From assembly GCA_030432235.1 (NCBI GenBank), contig JAUIHT010000002.1:1-64000 (forward strand): 64,000 nt of DNA, given 5' to 3'. Positions within the stretch are counted from its first letter, which is position 1; every line of letters begins with the position of its first letter. The notes beneath the pieces are model-generated. The model saw only the letters and a list, made by a program, of their open reading frames with translations, was not told the origin of the DNA and made no database searches. Below are positions 20,146 through 26,151 of this stretch, in pieces. The DNA is from Verrucomicrobiia bacterium (GTDB taxonomy: Bacteria; Verrucomicrobiota; Verrucomicrobiia; Opitutales; Cerasicoccaceae). A program made the position numbers and the translations under genes.

Positions 20146-20251
20146 TCCCCCACCCTACGTGCGATAAGCCGGATGTCAAAGATGGCTTGCATCACTTCAT
20201 TACCTATAAGCTTGCCGCTTTTTGCCTCCTACTACGAAATGCCAGCGTTGC

Positions 20252-21694
20252 ATGTTTGAACAAACTTTCAAGAACCTCGACGATGTGCTGTGGAAGGAGG
20301 CCGGGTGCGGCTCCGAGCTGGACTATGCCGAGCAAACCTCCTGGCTGCTCTTCCTGAAATACCTGGAGGACACTGAGCCTGCCCGCGAGATGAACGACAC
20401 CTTCGCGGGCCGCACCTACGCGCCCCTCTTTGAAAAGCCCTACCGCTGGAGCACCTGGGTGCACGCGCGCAAGGACGAGCTGACGGGCGACGACCTCATC
20501 AAGTTCGTCAACCACGAGCTCTTCCCCTACCTGCAGGGCTTCAAGCAGCCCGAGGGCGACCCCAACACTATCGAGTATAAAATCGGCGAAATCTTCTCCG
20601 AGGTGCGCAACAAGTTCTCCAGCGGCTACCTCATGCGGGACGCCGTGGACCTCATCGACGGGCTGGAGTTCAAGAGCCAGGAGCAAAAGCACGAGCTGTC
20701 CGACCTCTACGAGACGCGCATTAAAAACATGGGCAACGCCGGGCGCAACGGGGGCGAGTACTACACGCCGCGCCCGCTCATCCGCGCCATGATTCGCGTG
20801 ACCGACCCGCAGATCGGCGAGACCATCTTCGACCCTGCCTGCGGCTCGGCGGGCTTCCTTTGCGAAAGCTTCCAATATCTGTGGGAGAAGAACCGACAGC
20901 ACATGTCCCCCCAGCAGCTCGACTTCCTGCAGAGCAAAACCTTCCACGGACGGGAAAAGAAGTCCCTGGCCTACATCCTCGGGGTCATGAACATGATCCT
21001 GCACGGCATCGAGGCCCCCAACATCGTCCACGGCAATACCCTGGCGGAAAAGCCCCTCGACGACATCCAGCCGCACGAGCAGCACCACATCATCCTGGCC
21101 AATCCCCCCTTTGGCGGCAAGGAGCGCAAGGAGGTGCAACAGAACTTCTCCATCAAGACGGGCGAGACCGCCTTCCTCTTCCTCCAGTACTTTATCAAGT
21201 CGCTCAAGCCCGGCGGGCGCGCTGCCGTCATTATTAAGAACACTTTCCTTTCCAATAGCGACAACGCCAGCCGCAGCCTGCGCAAGCGCCTGCTGGAGGA
21301 CAGCGACCTGCATACCATCCTCGACTGCCCGGCCAAGACCTTCCTCGGTGCGGGGGTCAAGACCGTCGTCCTCTTCTTCACCAAGGGCGCGCCCACGCGC
21401 AAGCTATGGTACTACCAGCTCGACCCCGGCCGCTCCCTCGGCAAGACCAGCCCGCTCAACGACGACGACCTGGCCGAGTTTGTAGAATTTCAAAAGACGA
21501 AGGCGGACAGCGAGCGCTCCTGGTCCATCGACGTTAAGACGCTGGACAAGGACAGCGCCGACCTCTCGGTCAAGAACCCCAACGCCCCCGAGGCTGAGCC
21601 CCTGCGCGACCCCGCCGAGATCCTCGACGAAATCGCCGCCCTCGAGCAGGAAACCGCCGAAGCCCTCAACGACATCCGCGCCCTCATCGCATGA
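20252..21694 (+). CDS. hsdM: type I restriction-modification system, methyltransferase subunit HsdM
   Basis: This 480-residue N6-adenine methyltransferase subunit opens with the HsdM N-terminal helical domain (MFEQTFKNLDDVLWKEAG), which fixes the start at ATG 20252. A TTG at 20222 would add ten untypical residues. It continues with GGEYYTPRPLIRAMI, the AdoMet motif DPACGSAGFL (194-203) and the catalytic NPPF (284-287). With HsdS it methylates host recognition sites; with HsdR it forms the restriction complex. The stop overlaps the hsdS start (ATGA), so the two are translationally coupled. No inactivating change is visible. Confidence 0.96.
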   Translation: MFEQTFKNLDDVLWKEAGCGSELDYAEQTSWLLFLKYLEDTEPAREMNDTFAGRTYAPLFEKPYRWSTWVHARKDELTGDDLIKFVNHELFPYLQGFKQPEGDPNTIEYKIGEIFSEVRNKFSSGYLMRDAVDLIDGLEFKSQEQKHELSDLYETRIKNMGNAGRNGGEYYTPRPLIRAMIRVTDPQIGETIFDPACGSAGFLCESFQYLWEKNRQHMSPQQLDFLQSKTFHGREKKSLAYILGVMNMILHGIEAPNIVHGNTLAEKPLDDIQPHEQHHIILANPPFGGKERKEVQQNFSIKTGETAFLFLQYFIKSLKPGGRAAVIIKNTFLSNSDNASRSLRKRLLEDSDLHTILDCPAKTFLGAGVKTVVLFFTKGAPTRKLWYYQLDPGRSLGKTSPLNDDDLAEFVEFQKTKADSERSWSIDVKTLDKDSADLSVKNPNAPEAEPLRDPAEILDEIAALEQETAEALNDIRALIA

Positions 21695-22866
21695 AAAACT
21701 GGAAGACAGTAAAGCTCGGGGAGGTTGTAGAACCAATAGAAACAACAGATCCTACAAAGGCGGCTCAGAACGAATTCACTTATATAGATGTCTCTAGCAT
21801 CTCACGCGCTTCATTTGAGATAGAAAGCACGAGCGTTCTCCTTGGTAAGGATGCTCCTAGCCGAGCAAGGCGCGCAGTAAAAGAGGGAGATGTGCTTTTT
21901 GCCACCATTCGCCCTACACTCCAGCGAATTGCCATTGTCCCACAAGAACTTGATGGAGCCGTTTGCAGCACTGGCTACTATGTCTTACGTGCTAAATCAG
22001 AATTGGTCAGTCCTTCCTATATATTTCACTATCTATTTTCCGAGGCGTTCTTTGCTGAAATGGAGCAATTGCAAAGAGGTGCCAGTTATCCTGCCGTTAG
22101 CGACAACGACGTTAAGCAACATTATATCCCTCTGCCGCCGCTGGAGGAGCAGAAGCGCATCGTGGCGATACTCGACACCGCCTTCGCCGCCATCGCCACC
22201 GCCACCGCCAACACCCAAAAAGTCCACGACAAAGCCAAGGAGGTGTTTGAGCGGGCTCGAAGGGATTTTATACAAGCAGGCGGTAACGGATGGATCGAAA
22301 CAACAATTGGTCAGCAATTAGTCCTACAAAGAGGTTTTGATATTACCAAGTCTCAACAAGAGTCAGGAAAAATTCCAGTTGTCTCTAGTGGTGGAATAAA
22401 GAGCTATCACTCAACTTTCAAAGCATCAGGACCTGGCGTCATTCTTGGCCGTAAAGGTTCGATTGGCTCAATATATTACATAGAAGAAGATTATTGGCCG
22501 CACGACACGACACTCTGGGTTAAGGATTACAAAGATAATCTTCCCAAATATATCTTTCACTTTATGCATACGCTAGATTTGCGTGGATTAGATTCTGGCA
22601 CTGCAAATCCTGCTTTGAATCGAAATTTGATTCACCCAATAAAAGTGCTTTGGCCTACAATCTTCCAGCAGCACCGCATCGTGGAAAAGCTGGATGCGCT
22701 GGCGGAGCAGACGGAGCGGGTGGCGGCGCTGGCCGAGCGTAAGCTGGCCCTGCTCGACGCACTGAAGCAATCCCTCCTCGCCAAAGCCTTCCGCGGCGAG
22801 CTGACCACCGAAGACGCCCAGCCCGGGAACGCAGCTCTCCTGAGCTGCTCCCAAGCCATAGCCTAA
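21691..22866 (+). CDS. hsdS: type I restriction-modification specificity subunit HsdS
   Basis: The 391-residue protein has two target-recognition domains (about 1-140 and 195-320). Each is followed by a conserved helical spacer: PPLEEQKRIVAILDTAFAA and, later, QQHRIVEKLDALAEQTERV. It reads two half-sites and so sets the specificity of the system. Both recognition domains are distinctly AT-rich, while the spacers are GC-rich like the rest of the operon, a common sign of domain exchange. The natural end is probably around AFRGELTTEDAQ. The last residues (PGNAALLSCSQAIA) are encoded by a REP hairpin at 22825-22852, so the C terminus has been rewritten by repeat insertion. Confidence 0.93.
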   Translation: MKNWKTVKLGEVVEPIETTDPTKAAQNEFTYIDVSSISRASFEIESTSVLLGKDAPSRARRAVKEGDVLFATIRPTLQRIAIVPQELDGAVCSTGYYVLRAKSELVSPSYIFHYLFSEAFFAEMEQLQRGASYPAVSDNDVKQHYIPLPPLEEQKRIVAILDTAFAAIATATANTQKVHDKAKEVFERARRDFIQAGGNGWIETTIGQQLVLQRGFDITKSQQESGKIPVVSSGGIKSYHSTFKASGPGVILGRKGSIGSIYYIEEDYWPHDTTLWVKDYKDNLPKYIFHFMHTLDLRGLDSGTANPALNRNLIHPIKVLWPTIFQQHRIVEKLDALAEQTERVAALAERKLALLDALKQSLLAKAFRGELTTEDAQPGNAALLSCSQAIA

Positions 22867-22954
22867 ATGCAGAACAGCTTCAACAGACTAAAGGTAAAAG
22901 CGAATCAGGAGATTCGCGCTCCCAATAGGAACGCAGCTCTCCTGAGCTGCTCCC
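22825..22954. repeat. REP-like hairpin cluster between hsdS and the RAYT gene
   Basis: Three hairpins of one family occur here. GCAGCTC-TCCT-GAGCTGC lies at 22831-22848 with GGGAAC before it, inside hsdS. GCGAATC-AGGA-GATTCGC lies at 22900-22917, followed by GCTCCC. GCAGCTC-TCCT-GAGCTGC lies at 22933-22950 with GGAAC before it. The second and third face each other, like the paired REPs of a BIME. The stem is seven perfect pairs, the loop is NGGA or its complement, and the tail is G(T/C)TCCC. Confidence 0.88.
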
Positions 22955-22968
22955 AAGCCGCCGTGTAG

Positions 22969-23691
22969 ATGGAGGGAGAGAGGAAAGCGGGAAGAGTCGA
23001 GGCAGGTCAGGAGACCTGCGTGCCCGGAAGTTGCGTTCCTAAAATTTGCGAACCTAAAGGGTGGCACTCGCGGGGTTACTTGCCTCACTTCGACAGCACT
23101 CACCATATCCAGCATGTTACCTTGCATCTGGCTGACAGTCTGCCGAAGGACGTCCTTGAGCGTTTAGATGAGTCCTTAAGATTATTGCCGGACGCTGAGC
23201 AAAAGCTTGAGCGTGTTCAGCGTCTGCAAGAGCTCATAGATGCGGGTTACGGGTCTTGTGTTTTCAATGAGCCCGAACCGGCTGAGATGATGCAGCAAAC
23301 TTTGCAGCATTTCGACGGCGAGCGATATGAGCTACACGCGTGGGTAATCATGCCCAACCATGTCCACGTCCTGCTGCAAACTAAAGGCGATTGGGAATTG
23401 TCGAAGGTGGTTGCCAGTTGGAAGAAGTTTAGCGCGCGGAGGATAAATGATTGGAAAAGGGCAGTAGAGGCAACTCGGGAGAGTTGCGTTCCCAAGAGTT
23501 GTGTACCCGGGAACGCAGCTCTCCCGAGCTGCCACTCCCCCGCTCCCGTCTGGCATTCGGAGTATTGGGACCGGTACATCCGGAACGACAACCACTATCA
23601 TCAAGTACTGGAGTATATACATAACAATCCAGTAAAAGCTGGTCTTTGCGAAAATCCTAAACTATGGCCTTGGAGCAGCTTAGCTAAGTAA
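22969..23691 (+). CDS. REP-associated tyrosine transposase (RAYT, Y1_Tnp/IS200-like)
   Basis: The frame encodes 240 residues of a single-strand HUH transposase. WHSRGYLPHFDS is the usual RAYT opening, MPNHVHVLLQ carries the HUH pair H131/H133, and YIRNDNHYHQVLEYIHNNPV contains the catalytic tyrosine region. The first 30 residues (rich in ETCVP/SCVP words) are translated REP hairpin (23002-23019), so the ancestral start was probably near GWHSRGYL. A second REP pair is inserted in frame at 23470-23537 (ESCVPKSCVPGNAALPSC), between the helix ending RRINDW and the conserved VWHSEYWDRYIRN. RAYTs mobilise or maintain their REPs. This one sits in the hsd operon, three bases before hsdR. Confidence 0.92.
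   Translation: MEGERKAGRVEAGQETCVPGSCVPKICEPKGWHSRGYLPHFDSTHHIQHVTLHLADSLPKDVLERLDESLRLLPDAEQKLERVQRLQELIDAGYGSCVFNEPEPAEMMQQTLQHFDGERYELHAWVIMPNHVHVLLQTKGDWELSKVVASWKKFSARRINDWKRAVEATRESCVPKSCVPGNAALPSCHSPAPVWHSEYWDRYIRNDNHYHQVLEYIHNNPVKAGLCENPKLWPWSSLAK
23002..23040. repeat. REP hairpin within the 5' end of the RAYT frame
   Basis: GCAGGTC (23002-23008), loop AGGA, GACCTGC (23013-23019), then GTGCCCGG and a partial tail TTGCGTTCC. The stem differs from its neighbours but both arms change together. It is translated as part of the transposase N terminus. Confidence 0.85.
23470..23537. repeat. inverted pair of REP hairpins inside the RAYT coding sequence
   Basis: GCAACTC-GGGA-GAGTTGC (23470-23487) is followed by GTTCCC. 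After a short linker, GGGAAC precedes GCAGCTC-TCCC-GAGCTGC (23515-23532). The two face each other head to head and are read through in frame. Confidence 0.87.
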
Positions 23692-23694
23692 TCC

Positions 23695-26151
23695 ATGGAC
23701 CACTACACCGAAGCCGACACACGTGCGGAGCTGATTGACCATCAGCTTAATGCTGCGGGTTGGACTACAGGTGGTTCCATTCGAGTATCACGCGAATACG
23801 TGCTTTCCATCGGGCGGCTTCAAGGCGGGGGACGTCGCAGCAAGCTACTCAAGGCCGACTACGTCTTGTTTTACCGGGACCAGCCCTTGGCCGTCATTGA
23901 GGCTAAGGCGAAGGGGCTCGGGTCCGGCGAGGGCGTCGGGCAGGCCAAGGACTACGCAGAAAAGCTCGACGCGCCTTTTGCTTTCTCCACCGACGGTGTC
24001 GAGCTCTATCGCATCGACATGCGCCGTGGCACGGAGGGCCCCATCGAGGCCTACCCCACGCCGGACGAGCTCTGGCTGGACCTCTACGGGGAAACCGAAA
24101 AGCGCGAGCAGGTCTGGCGCGAGCGCTTCGCCGCCGTGCCCATCGAGGATAAGAGCGGGCAGTGGCAGCCGCGCTACTACCAGCACGCCGCCATCACCCA
24201 TGCGCTTGGGGCCATTGCCGCCGGGCGCGACCGCATCCTGCTGACCCTCGCTACTGGCACGGGCAAGACCGCCATCGCCTTCCAAATCGCCTGGAAGCTC
24301 TTCGAGAGCCGCTGGAATCTGGATGCATGGGGACACCAGGAACAGGAAACGGCAGGCAGCTCGGGAGAGCTGCCTACCCGGGAACGCGAATCTCCTGATT
24401 CGCTTACTGAAGAGCAGAACAGGAGTTCTGCGCTCCCGAAATTGCGCCGCCCGCGCATCCTGTTCCTGGCCGACCGCAACGTGCTCGCCAACCAGGCCTA
24501 TAACAGCTTCTCCGCCTTCGACGAAAACGCCCTCGTGCGCATCGACCCGGCGGAAATCCGCAAGAAAGGCAAGGTGCCGACGAACGGCTCGCTCTTCTTC
24601 ACCATCTTCCAGACCTTCATGACGGATCGCGGCGAGGCCGACACCGCCAAGCTCTGTTACGAGCAATACCCGCCGGACTTTTTCGACCTCATCATCATCG
24701 ACGAGTGCCACCGCGGCGGGGCCAAGGACGAGTCCACCTGGCGCGACATCCTCACGCACTTCCGCCCCGCCGTACAGCTTGGGCTGACCGCCACCCCCAA
24801 ACGCAAGGACAACGTCGACACCTACGCCTACTTCGGCGAGCCCGTCTACGTCTACTCGCTCAAGGACGGTATCAACGACGGCTACCTGACCCCCTTCAAG
24901 GTGAAGCAAATCCAGACCACGCTCGACGACTATGTTTTTACACCCGACGACGACGTGCTGGAGGGCGAGGTCGAAGCGGGCAAGCGCTACGAGGAAAAGG
25001 ACTTCAACCGCATCATCGAAATCAAAGAGCGCGAGGCCAAGCGCGTGCAGGTTTTCCTCGACTTGATTGACCAAAAGGAAAAGACCCTCGTCTTCTGTGC
25101 CAACCAGGCCCACGCGGCGCTCGTGCGCGACCTCATCAATCAATACGCCGCTAGCGACCACCCCTTTTACTGCTGCCGCGTGACCGCCAACGACGGCGCC
25201 ATCGGCGAGGAGAAGCTGCGCGAGTTCCAAGACAACGAACGCAGCATCCCCACCATCCTCACCACCTCGCAAAAGCTTTCTACTGGAGTCGACGCCCGCA
25301 ACGTCCGCAACATCGTGCTCATGCGCCCGGTCAACAGCATGATCGAGTTTAAGCAAATCGTCGGGCGCGGTACCCGGCTCTATGACGGCAAGGACTTCTT
25401 TACCATCTACGATTTCGTCAAAGCCTACCATCACTTCAGCGACCCGGAGTGGGACGGCGAACCAATCGAGCCGGTAGCCCCTAAGCCTAAACCGGGGCCC
25501 ACACCACCCGGCCCCGAGCCCGATGGTCCAGGCGGTGATGGTCCTCCGCCTGAGCCGCGCCAAAAGATTAAAATCAGGCTGGCCGACGGCAAGGAGCGCA
25601 CCATTCAGCACATGATGATGACGAGCTACTGGAGCGCGGAGGGCAAGCCCGTGTCCGCGCATCAGTTTGCCCAGGAGCTTTTCGGGGCCCTACCCACGCT
25701 CTTTAAGGACGAAGTACAGCTGCGCGAAATCTGGGGCCGTCCCGACACGCGCGAGAAGCTGTTACAGGCCCTCGAAGAAAAGGGCTATGGCCGCGAGCAG
25801 CTCGCGGAGTTCGCCGACGCCATCGACGCCCCCCAAAGCGACCTCTATGACGTCCTGGCCTACATCGCTTACAAGAGCCAACCTCTGACACGCGAGGAGC
25901 GTGTGCACAACCACCGCACCCTCATCTTCGAGGGCTACGCCGACCCTCAACGCGAGTTTATCGACTTTGTCTTGAGCCAATATGTGAAGACCGGGCTCAG
26001 CGCTCTAGAGCTGCCCTCGCTGGGCAAGCTCCTAACGCTCAAGTACCACTCTCCGGACGTAGCAGTCAAAAGCCTCGGCAACCCCACAGACATCCGCGAT
26101 CTTTTCTCAGACTTCCAGCATCATCTTTACGAAGACGATGTGGTGGCGTAA
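23695..26151 (+). CDS. hsdR: type I restriction endonuclease subunit HsdR
   Basis: This 818-residue motor and nuclease subunit has an N-terminal PD-(D/E)xK domain with D55, E69 and K71 (KADYVLF ... LAVIEAKA). SF2 translocase motifs follow: ATGTGKT (186-192), DECH (336-339), TATP (365-368) and QIVGRGTR (554-561). A proline-rich linker (about 595-622) leads to an EcoEI-like C-terminal domain. Between KLFESRWNLD and LRRPRILFLADRN there are about 39 extra residues (211-249) encoded by three REP hairpins (24356-24431). The relatives I know join these segments by only a few residues. The frame is preserved, so the protein may still work. The RAYT gene now separates hsdR from hsdS and may alter its expression. 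Confidence 0.95.
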   Translation: MDHYTEADTRAELIDHQLNAAGWTTGGSIRVSREYVLSIGRLQGGGRRSKLLKADYVLFYRDQPLAVIEAKAKGLGSGEGVGQAKDYAEKLDAPFAFSTDGVELYRIDMRRGTEGPIEAYPTPDELWLDLYGETEKREQVWRERFAAVPIEDKSGQWQPRYYQHAAITHALGAIAAGRDRILLTLATGTGKTAIAFQIAWKLFESRWNLDAWGHQEQETAGSSGELPTRERESPDSLTEEQNRSSALPKLRRPRILFLADRNVLANQAYNSFSAFDENALVRIDPAEIRKKGKVPTNGSLFFTIFQTFMTDRGEADTAKLCYEQYPPDFFDLIIIDECHRGGAKDESTWRDILTHFRPAVQLGLTATPKRKDNVDTYAYFGEPVYVYSLKDGINDGYLTPFKVKQIQTTLDDYVFTPDDDVLEGEVEAGKRYEEKDFNRIIEIKEREAKRVQVFLDLIDQKEKTLVFCANQAHAALVRDLINQYAASDHPFYCCRVTANDGAIGEEKLREFQDNERSIPTILTTSQKLSTGVDARNVRNIVLMRPVNSMIEFKQIVGRGTRLYDGKDFFTIYDFVKAYHHFSDPEWDGEPIEPVAPKPKPGPTPPGPEPDGPGGDGPPPEPRQKIKIRLADGKERTIQHMMMTSYWSAEGKPVSAHQFAQELFGALPTLFKDEVQLREIWGRPDTREKLLQALEEKGYGREQLAEFADAIDAPQSDLYDVLAYIAYKSQPLTREERVHNHRTLIFEGYADPQREFIDFVLSQYVKTGLSALELPSLGKLLTLKYHSPDVAVKSLGNPTDIRDLFSDFQHHLYEDDVVA
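24356..24437. repeat. three REP hairpins inserted in frame in hsdR
   Basis: The hairpins are GCAGCTC-GGGA-GAGCTGC (24356-24373), GCGAATC-TCCT-GATTCGC (24386-24403) and GCAGAAC-AGGA-GTTCTGC (24414-24431). A CTACCCGGGAAC junction joins the first two, and GCTCCCG follows the third. Orientation alternates. Together they add codons between the Walker A motif and the next helicase motif. Confidence 0.88.

What the first reader, a model, noticed from the sequence alone, without database searches (positions are those of the whole stretch)
22825..24437. REP family with covarying stems and constant loop and tail around a RAYT in a type I restriction operon
Nine hairpins in 1.6 kb share the layout GCnnnnC-NGGA-GnnnnGC-G(T/C)TCCC or its complement. 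Five different stem sequences occur (GCAGCTC, GCGAATC, GCAGGTC, GCAACTC, GCAGAAC). In each the second arm is perfectly complementary, while the NGGA loop and CCC tail stay fixed. Compensated change with a fixed loop means the structure, not the stem sequence, is recognised. That suits a single-strand HUH transposase. Known REPs usually keep one stem; a family with freely varying stems would be unusual.
Basis: partly seen in the sequence, partly recalled or inferred. Interest (0 to 1): 0.8.

Follow-up and report, generated by a model that had tools for sequence, protein, structure and literature searches.

The report
Transposase-linked hairpin repeats with variable stems
Nine short DNA hairpins sit around, and in frame inside, a REP-type transposase gene and its restriction-enzyme neighbours; their stems change freely but stay paired while the loop stays fixed, a many-stem version of a known bacterial repeat system.

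Summary
The nine hairpins are real: all 7/7 paired, all with an NGGA loop, five stems in 1.6 kb. They are REP-type elements of a RAYT resembling TnpAY1 subclass 2.4/group 4, in an hsdM-hsdS-RAYT-hsdR operon. Compensated stem change is a family trait: among pattern hits not selected for pairing, 87 of 146 rows pair at all four free positions (shuffled mean 7.0, maximum 16), with 24 stems in 37 genomes. Of 96 RAYT loci, 77 carry hairpins with a shared foot G[GT]ANC-GC (281 copies; reversed control 1). The window foot is GGANC in seven of nine copies; one copy reads GTAG.

In this genome the nine significant copies found all lie in this locus. The tail is GYTCCC in six of nine.

Worth attention: 8-9 paired stems in single related genomes, inverted neighbours mostly with unlike stems, copies clustered near the RAYT, one site inside the RAYT gene occupied in 20 loci, in-frame copies in hsdR. 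Likely mechanism, inferred: the RAYT reads foot, loop and helix, not stem sequence.

The parts
20222..21694 (+). hsdM, type I DNA methyltransferase subunit
   Evidence: Pfam N6_Mtase, HsdM_N
21691..22866 (+). hsdS, specificity subunit; its last codons lie in and after hairpin 1
   Evidence: Pfam Methylase_S; translation ends GNAALLSCSQAIA
22825..22848 (-). hairpin 1, stem GCAGCTC, loop AGGA, tail GTTCCC
   Evidence: E 3.8e-5
22900..22923 (+). hairpin 2, stem GCGAATC, loop AGGA, tail GCTCCC
22927..22950 (-). hairpin 3, stem GCAGCTC, loop AGGA, tail GTTCCT
22969..23691 (+). RAYT (Y1/HUH REP-associated transposase), NHVH and YIHNNP motifs; conserved core 23074-23688
   Evidence: NCBIfam NF047646 about 103 bits over cut-off 80; AlphaFold model, best PDB match 4ER8
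23002..23025 (+). hairpin 4, stem GCAGGTC, loop AGGA, tail GTGCCC; in the RAYT frame if ATG 22969 is the start
23470..23493 (+). hairpin 5, stem GCAACTC, loop GGGA, tail GTTCCC, in frame inside the RAYT gene
23509..23532 (-). hairpin 6, stem GCAGCTC, loop GGGA, tail GTTCCC, in frame inside the RAYT gene at the same site
   Evidence: model residues 142-155, in the inserted loop, have pLDDT under 50
23695..26151 (+). hsdR, EcoAI/FtnUII-type restriction subunit
   Evidence: NCBIfam NF046051 791 bits over cut-off 550
24356..24379 (+). hairpin 7, stem GCAGCTC, loop GGGA, tail CTACCC (GTAG at the stem on the foot strand), in frame inside hsdR
24380..24403 (-). hairpin 8, stem GCGAATC, loop AGGA, tail GTTCCC, abutting hairpin 7 tail to tail, inside hsdR
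24414..24437 (+). hairpin 9, stem GCAGAAC, loop AGGA, tail GCTCCC, inside hsdR

Best explanation
The hairpins are REP-type, non-autonomous elements of the RAYT encoded between hsdS and hsdR. Read on the foot strand the family form is 5'-GGGANC-GC-NNNN-C-TCCN-G-NNNN-GC-3'. Shown: the GC base and loop are held across genomes, the foot largely so, while the four inner base pairs change freely with full compensation; copies cluster around the RAYT, recur at one site inside the RAYT gene, and lie in frame in neighbouring genes. Inferred: the RAYT binds the folded single strand through foot, loop and helix geometry, so that any self-complementary stem serves; it nicks next to the foot and moves or copies REPs mostly close to its own gene. 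Inferred for this genome: the RAYT and its REPs entered a cargo slot between hsdS and hsdR and spread locally into hsdS and hsdR, where the encoded peptides fall in tolerant places.
For: RAYT identity by family, sequence and fold. Stem covariation in hits not chosen for pairing: 87 of 146 rows perfect at four free pairs against a shuffled mean of 7.0 and maximum of 16; and on alignment A2 (71 cells changed on both sides against 22.1 shuffled, 0 of 500 shuffles, but I had chosen its rows as paired). Foot-GC layout at 77 of 96 RAYT loci, 281 copies against 1 in the reversed control. The window RAYT falls in a clade of 14 (SH-aLRT 97), of which 11 loci could be labelled: all have TCCN loops, with six different commonest stems. 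Two stems alternate around and inside a single RAYT: GCAACT with GCGAAT in G039 and G618. Clustering near the RAYT: 16 of 31 copies in G039, 6 of 34 in G618, 6 of 32 in G625 (beside a RAYT remnant), 9 of 10 hits in this genome, against 0.1 or fewer expected. An insertion of about 40 residues in hsdR that PDB 3h1t and ten aligned relatives lack (one of the ten, L188, has an unrelated insert there). Published: foot and loop bases, and stem pairing, matter in group 3 RAYTs (passages, PMC8266576).
Against: No binding or cleavage was tested, and movement was not observed. Nineteen of 96 RAYT loci show no hairpin of this layout, and 3 of the 14 in the window's clade could not be labelled (L143 with no family hairpin near, L091 and L092 with other feet). 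In 4 of 16 REP-bearing genomes outside f2 no RAYT flanked by this family was seen, one of them (G140) a single contig listed as 100% complete (loci reach about 1.5 kb either side). Local spread is an inference: the operon may have arrived whole from an unsampled REP-rich genome. The intact-looking RAYT has left no significant copy elsewhere in this genome.
Confidence: 0.7

Rival explanations
1. Each stem belongs to its own RAYT lineage, and the window is a mixture: several REP classes, each with a stem read by its own RAYT, piled up at one locus. Stem sequence would then be recognised.
For: At many RAYT loci one stem dominates, and stems differ between loci; internal and flanking copies share a stem in 20 of 21 loci (read by eye). 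Published REP classes are paired with cognate RAYTs (passages, PMC3686654).
Against: Two stems alternate around and inside single RAYT genes in G039, G618 and others. In the window's clade the loop stays TCCN while stems change. This genome has one RAYT of this type and five stems.
Confidence: 0.18
2. The hairpins act as RNA or DNA regulators of the operon (terminators, mRNA stabilisers) and were kept for that reason.
For: Such roles are proposed for REPs, many of which are plausibly transcribed (passages, PMC3733652); four copies lie at or near the hsdS-RAYT junction.
Against: At least five of the nine lie inside coding sequence, in both orientations. Of 27 rows with one unpaired cell, 14 are C-A on the NGGA strand (G-T on the foot strand), 5 are G-T on the NGGA strand and 8 neither (weak). 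No Rfam match reaches its gathering score.
Confidence: 0.07
3. The whole operon, with its REPs already in place, was acquired from an unsampled REP-rich relative; no movement took place in this genome. (Compatible with the RAYT mechanism above; it denies only the local spread here.)
For: All nine copies are in one 1.6 kb block; four of the five stems also occur in genus g7 (GCAGAA was not seen there).
Against: The closest hsdR in the 372 order genomes searched is in the same family, G442, at 74%, beside an hsdM at 76%, with no RAYT or family hairpin in that stretch. HsdM was not searched genome-wide.
Confidence: 0.35

Closest known systems
TnpAY1 subclass 2.4 (Bertels group 4) REPtrons (PMC6006769; section 13 and passages read)
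   Same: NH[IFV]H and YIxNNP motifs, variable insertion between HUH and Y made by in-frame REPs, flanking REPs
   Different: foot here mostly GGANC instead of GT[AG]G; W is followed by H, not Q; that survey's REP rules were built from REPs with GTAG or GTGG
GTAG REP families, including the GTAG-20 repeats of Opitutus terrae (PMC3733652; passages read)
   Same: short stems (most 6-9 bp), sub-families with complementary stem variants, dimers and heterodimers, copies in frame inside genes
   Different: only one of nine window copies has GTAG at the stem; nine copies confined to one locus; 8-9 stems in single related genomes
Group 3 REPs of Stenotrophomonas and Marinomonas (PMC8266576; passages read)
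   Same: short hairpin, conserved loop bases and foot, pairing of the stem needed
   Different: GTAG foot; recognition measured there, only inferred here
Rickettsia palindromic elements (passages in PMC3733652 only)
   Same: palindromes in frame inside protein genes
   Different: placed there among CGTC repeats, which that paper says apparently lack a dedicated transposase

Membership tests
REP element (definition in PMC3686654) | 5'-terminal conserved tetranucleotide GT[A/G]G | tested here: not met
   Seven of nine window copies fit G[GT]ANC at the stem and all seven are GGAAC or GGAGC (L041); hairpin 4 reads GGGCAC; hairpin 7 alone reads GTAG (tail CTACCC). GTAG feet are common in related RAYT loci L137, L145, L149, L163, L165, L167
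REP element (definition in PMC3686654) | palindrome downstream of the foot, variable composition | tested here: met
REP element | flanks a RAYT gene | tested here: met
   window; 77 of 96 RAYT loci have the layout
REP element | many copies dispersed through the genome | tested here: not met
   nine copies, one locus, in this genome; met in relatives, e.g. at least 149 matches in G245 and 111 in G221 at E up to 1 (150 candidates scored per genome)
RAYT | REP-associated tyrosine transposase profile, HUH and Y motifs | tested here: met
   NF047646 103.7 bits, cut-off 80; NHVH and YIHNNP; fold match 4ER8
TnpAY1 subclass 2.4 | REPs in frame inside the gene between HUH and Y | tested here: met
   window and 19 other loci, of 96, at residues 120-128 of the query
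TnpAY1 subclass 2.4 | WQ motif | tested here: not met
   WH in the window; W invariant in A1
TnpAY1 subclass 2.4 | placement by that paper's clustering or HMM | not testable with these tools
   their models are not held
REP recognition by RAYT | cleavage beside the foot on the folded strand | not testable with these tools
   needs protein

The most novel reading that the evidence does not exclude
One clade of RAYTs, found in several phyla, has given up stem recognition: a single enzyme serves an open set of stems, reading only a GGAN foot, the TCCN loop and a helix of set length. The working unit is an inverted pair with two different stems, which avoids a perfect 48-bp palindrome and so drives stems apart. 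The pairs spread near the RAYT and keep reading frame, adding peptides to restriction enzymes.
Probability: 0.3. Interest if true: 0.7.

Novelty: new variant of a known kind. Interest (0 to 1): 0.5.

Why it matters
How REPs spread is not settled (abstract of PMC8266576). This family offers a natural library of foot, loop and stem changes, small enough here to test: nine copies, one RAYT, one locus, with relatives that show hsdR without the insert. It would also show how a short palindrome can enter working enzymes in frame, including its own transposase.

Tried and rejected
Rejected: a genome-wide REP family in this genome. Rejected: decayed variants of one stem. Rejected: a known Rfam RNA; the ten matches (nine miRNA models and one leader) are far below their gathering scores.

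Not shown: enrichment of this RAYT beside type I systems. Hits to HsdM, HsdS or HsdR were found in 7 of the 80 named RAYT loci (L091, L094, L105, L157, L159, L161, L164, some weak), but also in 1 of the 20 contig stretches (L079), which were taken for hairpins or by contig number and of which two hold a RAYT or a remnant.

Weak: the idea that inverted neighbours must differ. In four genomes 39 of 39 inverted neighbours differ and 5 of 5 direct ones match; in the wider set, which shares loci with it, 57 of 73 inverted differ (16 alike) and 22 of 25 direct match. The pairs are not independent: for 39 independent pairs the chance of none alike is about 0.0004, but with one tail-to-tail pair per genome and stem combination about 0.17. 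DNA folding predicts cross-paired long hairpins for two window pairs. Weak: the strand test on single mismatches, 14 C-A, 5 G-T, 8 other, with one sequence repeated in several genomes.

Corrected: one search stopped on a script error and was rerun. The counts held duplicates and were replaced. One search used 120 rows and had left out 26 listed ones; one search uses all 146 distinct rows that I could find in the listings and replaces. Those listings show only the first ten places of a genome. The copies passed a scan that asks for at least five of six pairs, so their pairing rate is no evidence of pairing; its stem counts (10 and 9 for G618 and G625) include a few hairpins with another tail, so I use one search's stricter 9 and 8.
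Full report
Nine hairpins lie at 22825-24437, each with seven perfect pairs and an NGGA loop, with five stem sequences. Markov-simulated windows give 0.01 such hairpins on average and the reversed window none.

Anatomy. The operon is hsdM (20222-21694), hsdS (21691-22866), a RAYT (22969-23691) and hsdR (23695-26151). Hairpin 1 covers the end of hsdS; hairpins 5 and 6 are in frame inside the RAYT gene; hairpins 7 to 9 are in frame inside hsdR. The solved structure 3h1t and ten related hsdR genes lack the some forty residues that hsdR of the window has between residues 209 and 250; one of the ten, L188, has a different insert there without hairpins. The RAYT model has mean pLDDT 84, with residues 142-155, in the REP-encoded loop, under 50; its best solved match is 4ER8, a RAYT bound to a REP hairpin.

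Spread in genomes. In this 5.72 Mb assembly a covariance model built from 40 sequences, the nine among them, finds the nine copies and one chance-level hit. In the phylum sample 29 of 387 genomes hold the exact pattern with tail GTTCCC, and in the order sample 53 of 372 hold it with GNTCCC; some are single unpaired matches that look like chance, and the reversed control pattern gives scattered single hits. Related genomes have more copies at E up to 1: 31 in G039, 37 in G618, 33 in G625, 111 in G221, 149 in G245 (at most 150 candidates are scored per genome, so large counts are lower bounds).

Covariation. The patterns fix GC, the C-G closing pair, loop and tail but leave four pairs free. Of 146 rows (genome by distinct listed sequence, 73 genomes), 87 pair perfectly at all four, 27 at three, 12 at two, 8 at one and 12 at none; dealing the right arms anew gives 7.0 perfect rows on average and at most 16. 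The 87 hold 24 stems in 37 genomes, 17 of which have more than one stem in these listings. In G618, G625 and G039 the copies located, with family loop and tail, have 9, 8 and 5 paired stems.

The RAYT side. A search not fixed to loop or foot found hairpins that recur in 73 of 80; the strict NGGA form lies within 700 bases in 26 of 80. With 16 further loci, chosen from earlier hits and including the window, 77 of 96 carry at least one seven-pair hairpin with foot G[GT]ANC and GC base, 281 copies against 1 for the reversed layout. Most feet are GGANC; a few loci have GTAGC (L137, L145, L149, L163, L165, L167), and one window copy has GTAG at the stem, so the window foot looks like a variant of the GTAG foot (inference). 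On the tree the window RAYT sits in a clade of 14, SH-aLRT 97; its 11 labelled loci all have TCCN loops and six commonest stems (quick tree, 45 of 93 inner branches open).

The site inside the RAYT. In 21 of 96 loci a copy lies within the RAYT span; [quoted passage not shown] By reading, internal and flanking copies share at least one stem in 20 of 21 (not L191). REPs inside the gene, in frame and between HUH and Y, are the trait that PMC6006769 calls unique to subclass 2.4 (section 13), though it adds that some subclass 2.8 genes carry a REP insertion (passage).

Pairs. Copies that abut tail to tail have unlike stems in 14 of 15 cases over all loci, and in four genomes all 39 close inverted neighbours have unlike stems while 5 of 5 direct neighbours match. 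In the wider set 16 of 73 inverted neighbours are alike. Independence is poor, and I rate this as a lead. PMC3733652 already reports heterodimers and suggests that they may be protected from removal (passages).

Restriction operon. The same order hsdM-hsdS-RAYT-hsdR occurs in L159 (Victivallales), with further REPs inside hsdM and hsdR; L091 (Flavobacteriales) has RAYT then hsdR, and L190 (G325) hsdM, hsdS, RAYT before the contig ends. Eight related operons (L181-L188) have no RAYT hit in the stretch; open frames between hsdS and hsdR were scanned in seven of them and six have Pfam matches, such as DarT with a macro domain or a Schlafen-type protein, L187 none. Enrichment beside restriction systems was not shown.

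Association. In family f2 (43 genomes) all 12 with paired hairpins have a RAYT hit at E 1e-12 or better, against 6 of 31 without; shared ancestry is not removed. Outside f2, 5 of 16 REP-bearing genomes tested had no such hit. With the general RAYT profile 4 of these 5 have a RAYT-like gene (one over the cut-off); of the 20 loci fetched, only two, both of G363, have a hairpin of this family; a single fitting hairpin in G132 has another stem and loop. G631 has none, at 84% completeness.

Novelty. Searches of the held library and the passages read show no description of a GGAN-foot REP family, nor of a RAYT in the hsdS-hsdR slot; most subscription journals are not held, and beyond the passages I did not read the papers listed. 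Variable stems, loop reading, in-frame copies and copies inside RAYT genes are all in print. I therefore call this a new variant of a known kind.

Noticed in passing
L181 4511-6010, L183 6273-7133, L184 3291-5005, L185 3596-4051, L186 3276-5380, L188 5652-6011, L159 5267-6832: The hsdS-hsdR interval of related type I operons looks like a cargo slot: Schlafen AlbA_2, zinc ribbon, DarT plus macro domain, nucleotidyltransferase-binding, NucS-like, TPR, 23S IVP and RhuM matches.
   Followed up: partly
L201-L206, L208, L210, L212, L214 (G442): A genome of the same family carries its own REP-like hairpins with a GGANC foot, stems such as GCGAAT, GCGAAC and GCAAAT and other loops; they match the model only weakly.
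   Followed up: partly
L265, L268, L272 (G140): A single-contig genome with 13 model matches at E up to 1 has three evenly spaced RAYT-like genes of equal score that are not flanked by this REP family: orphan REPs perhaps.
   Followed up: partly
L060 (G531) 1258-2612: A more distant RAYT is surrounded by eight hairpins GCGGGTG-NGGA-CACCCGC with tail ACTCCG, another foot type.
   Followed up: no
L091, L135: Bacteroidota RAYT loci have the same hairpin layout with tails such as GAGCCCAG, a further foot variant.
   Followed up: no
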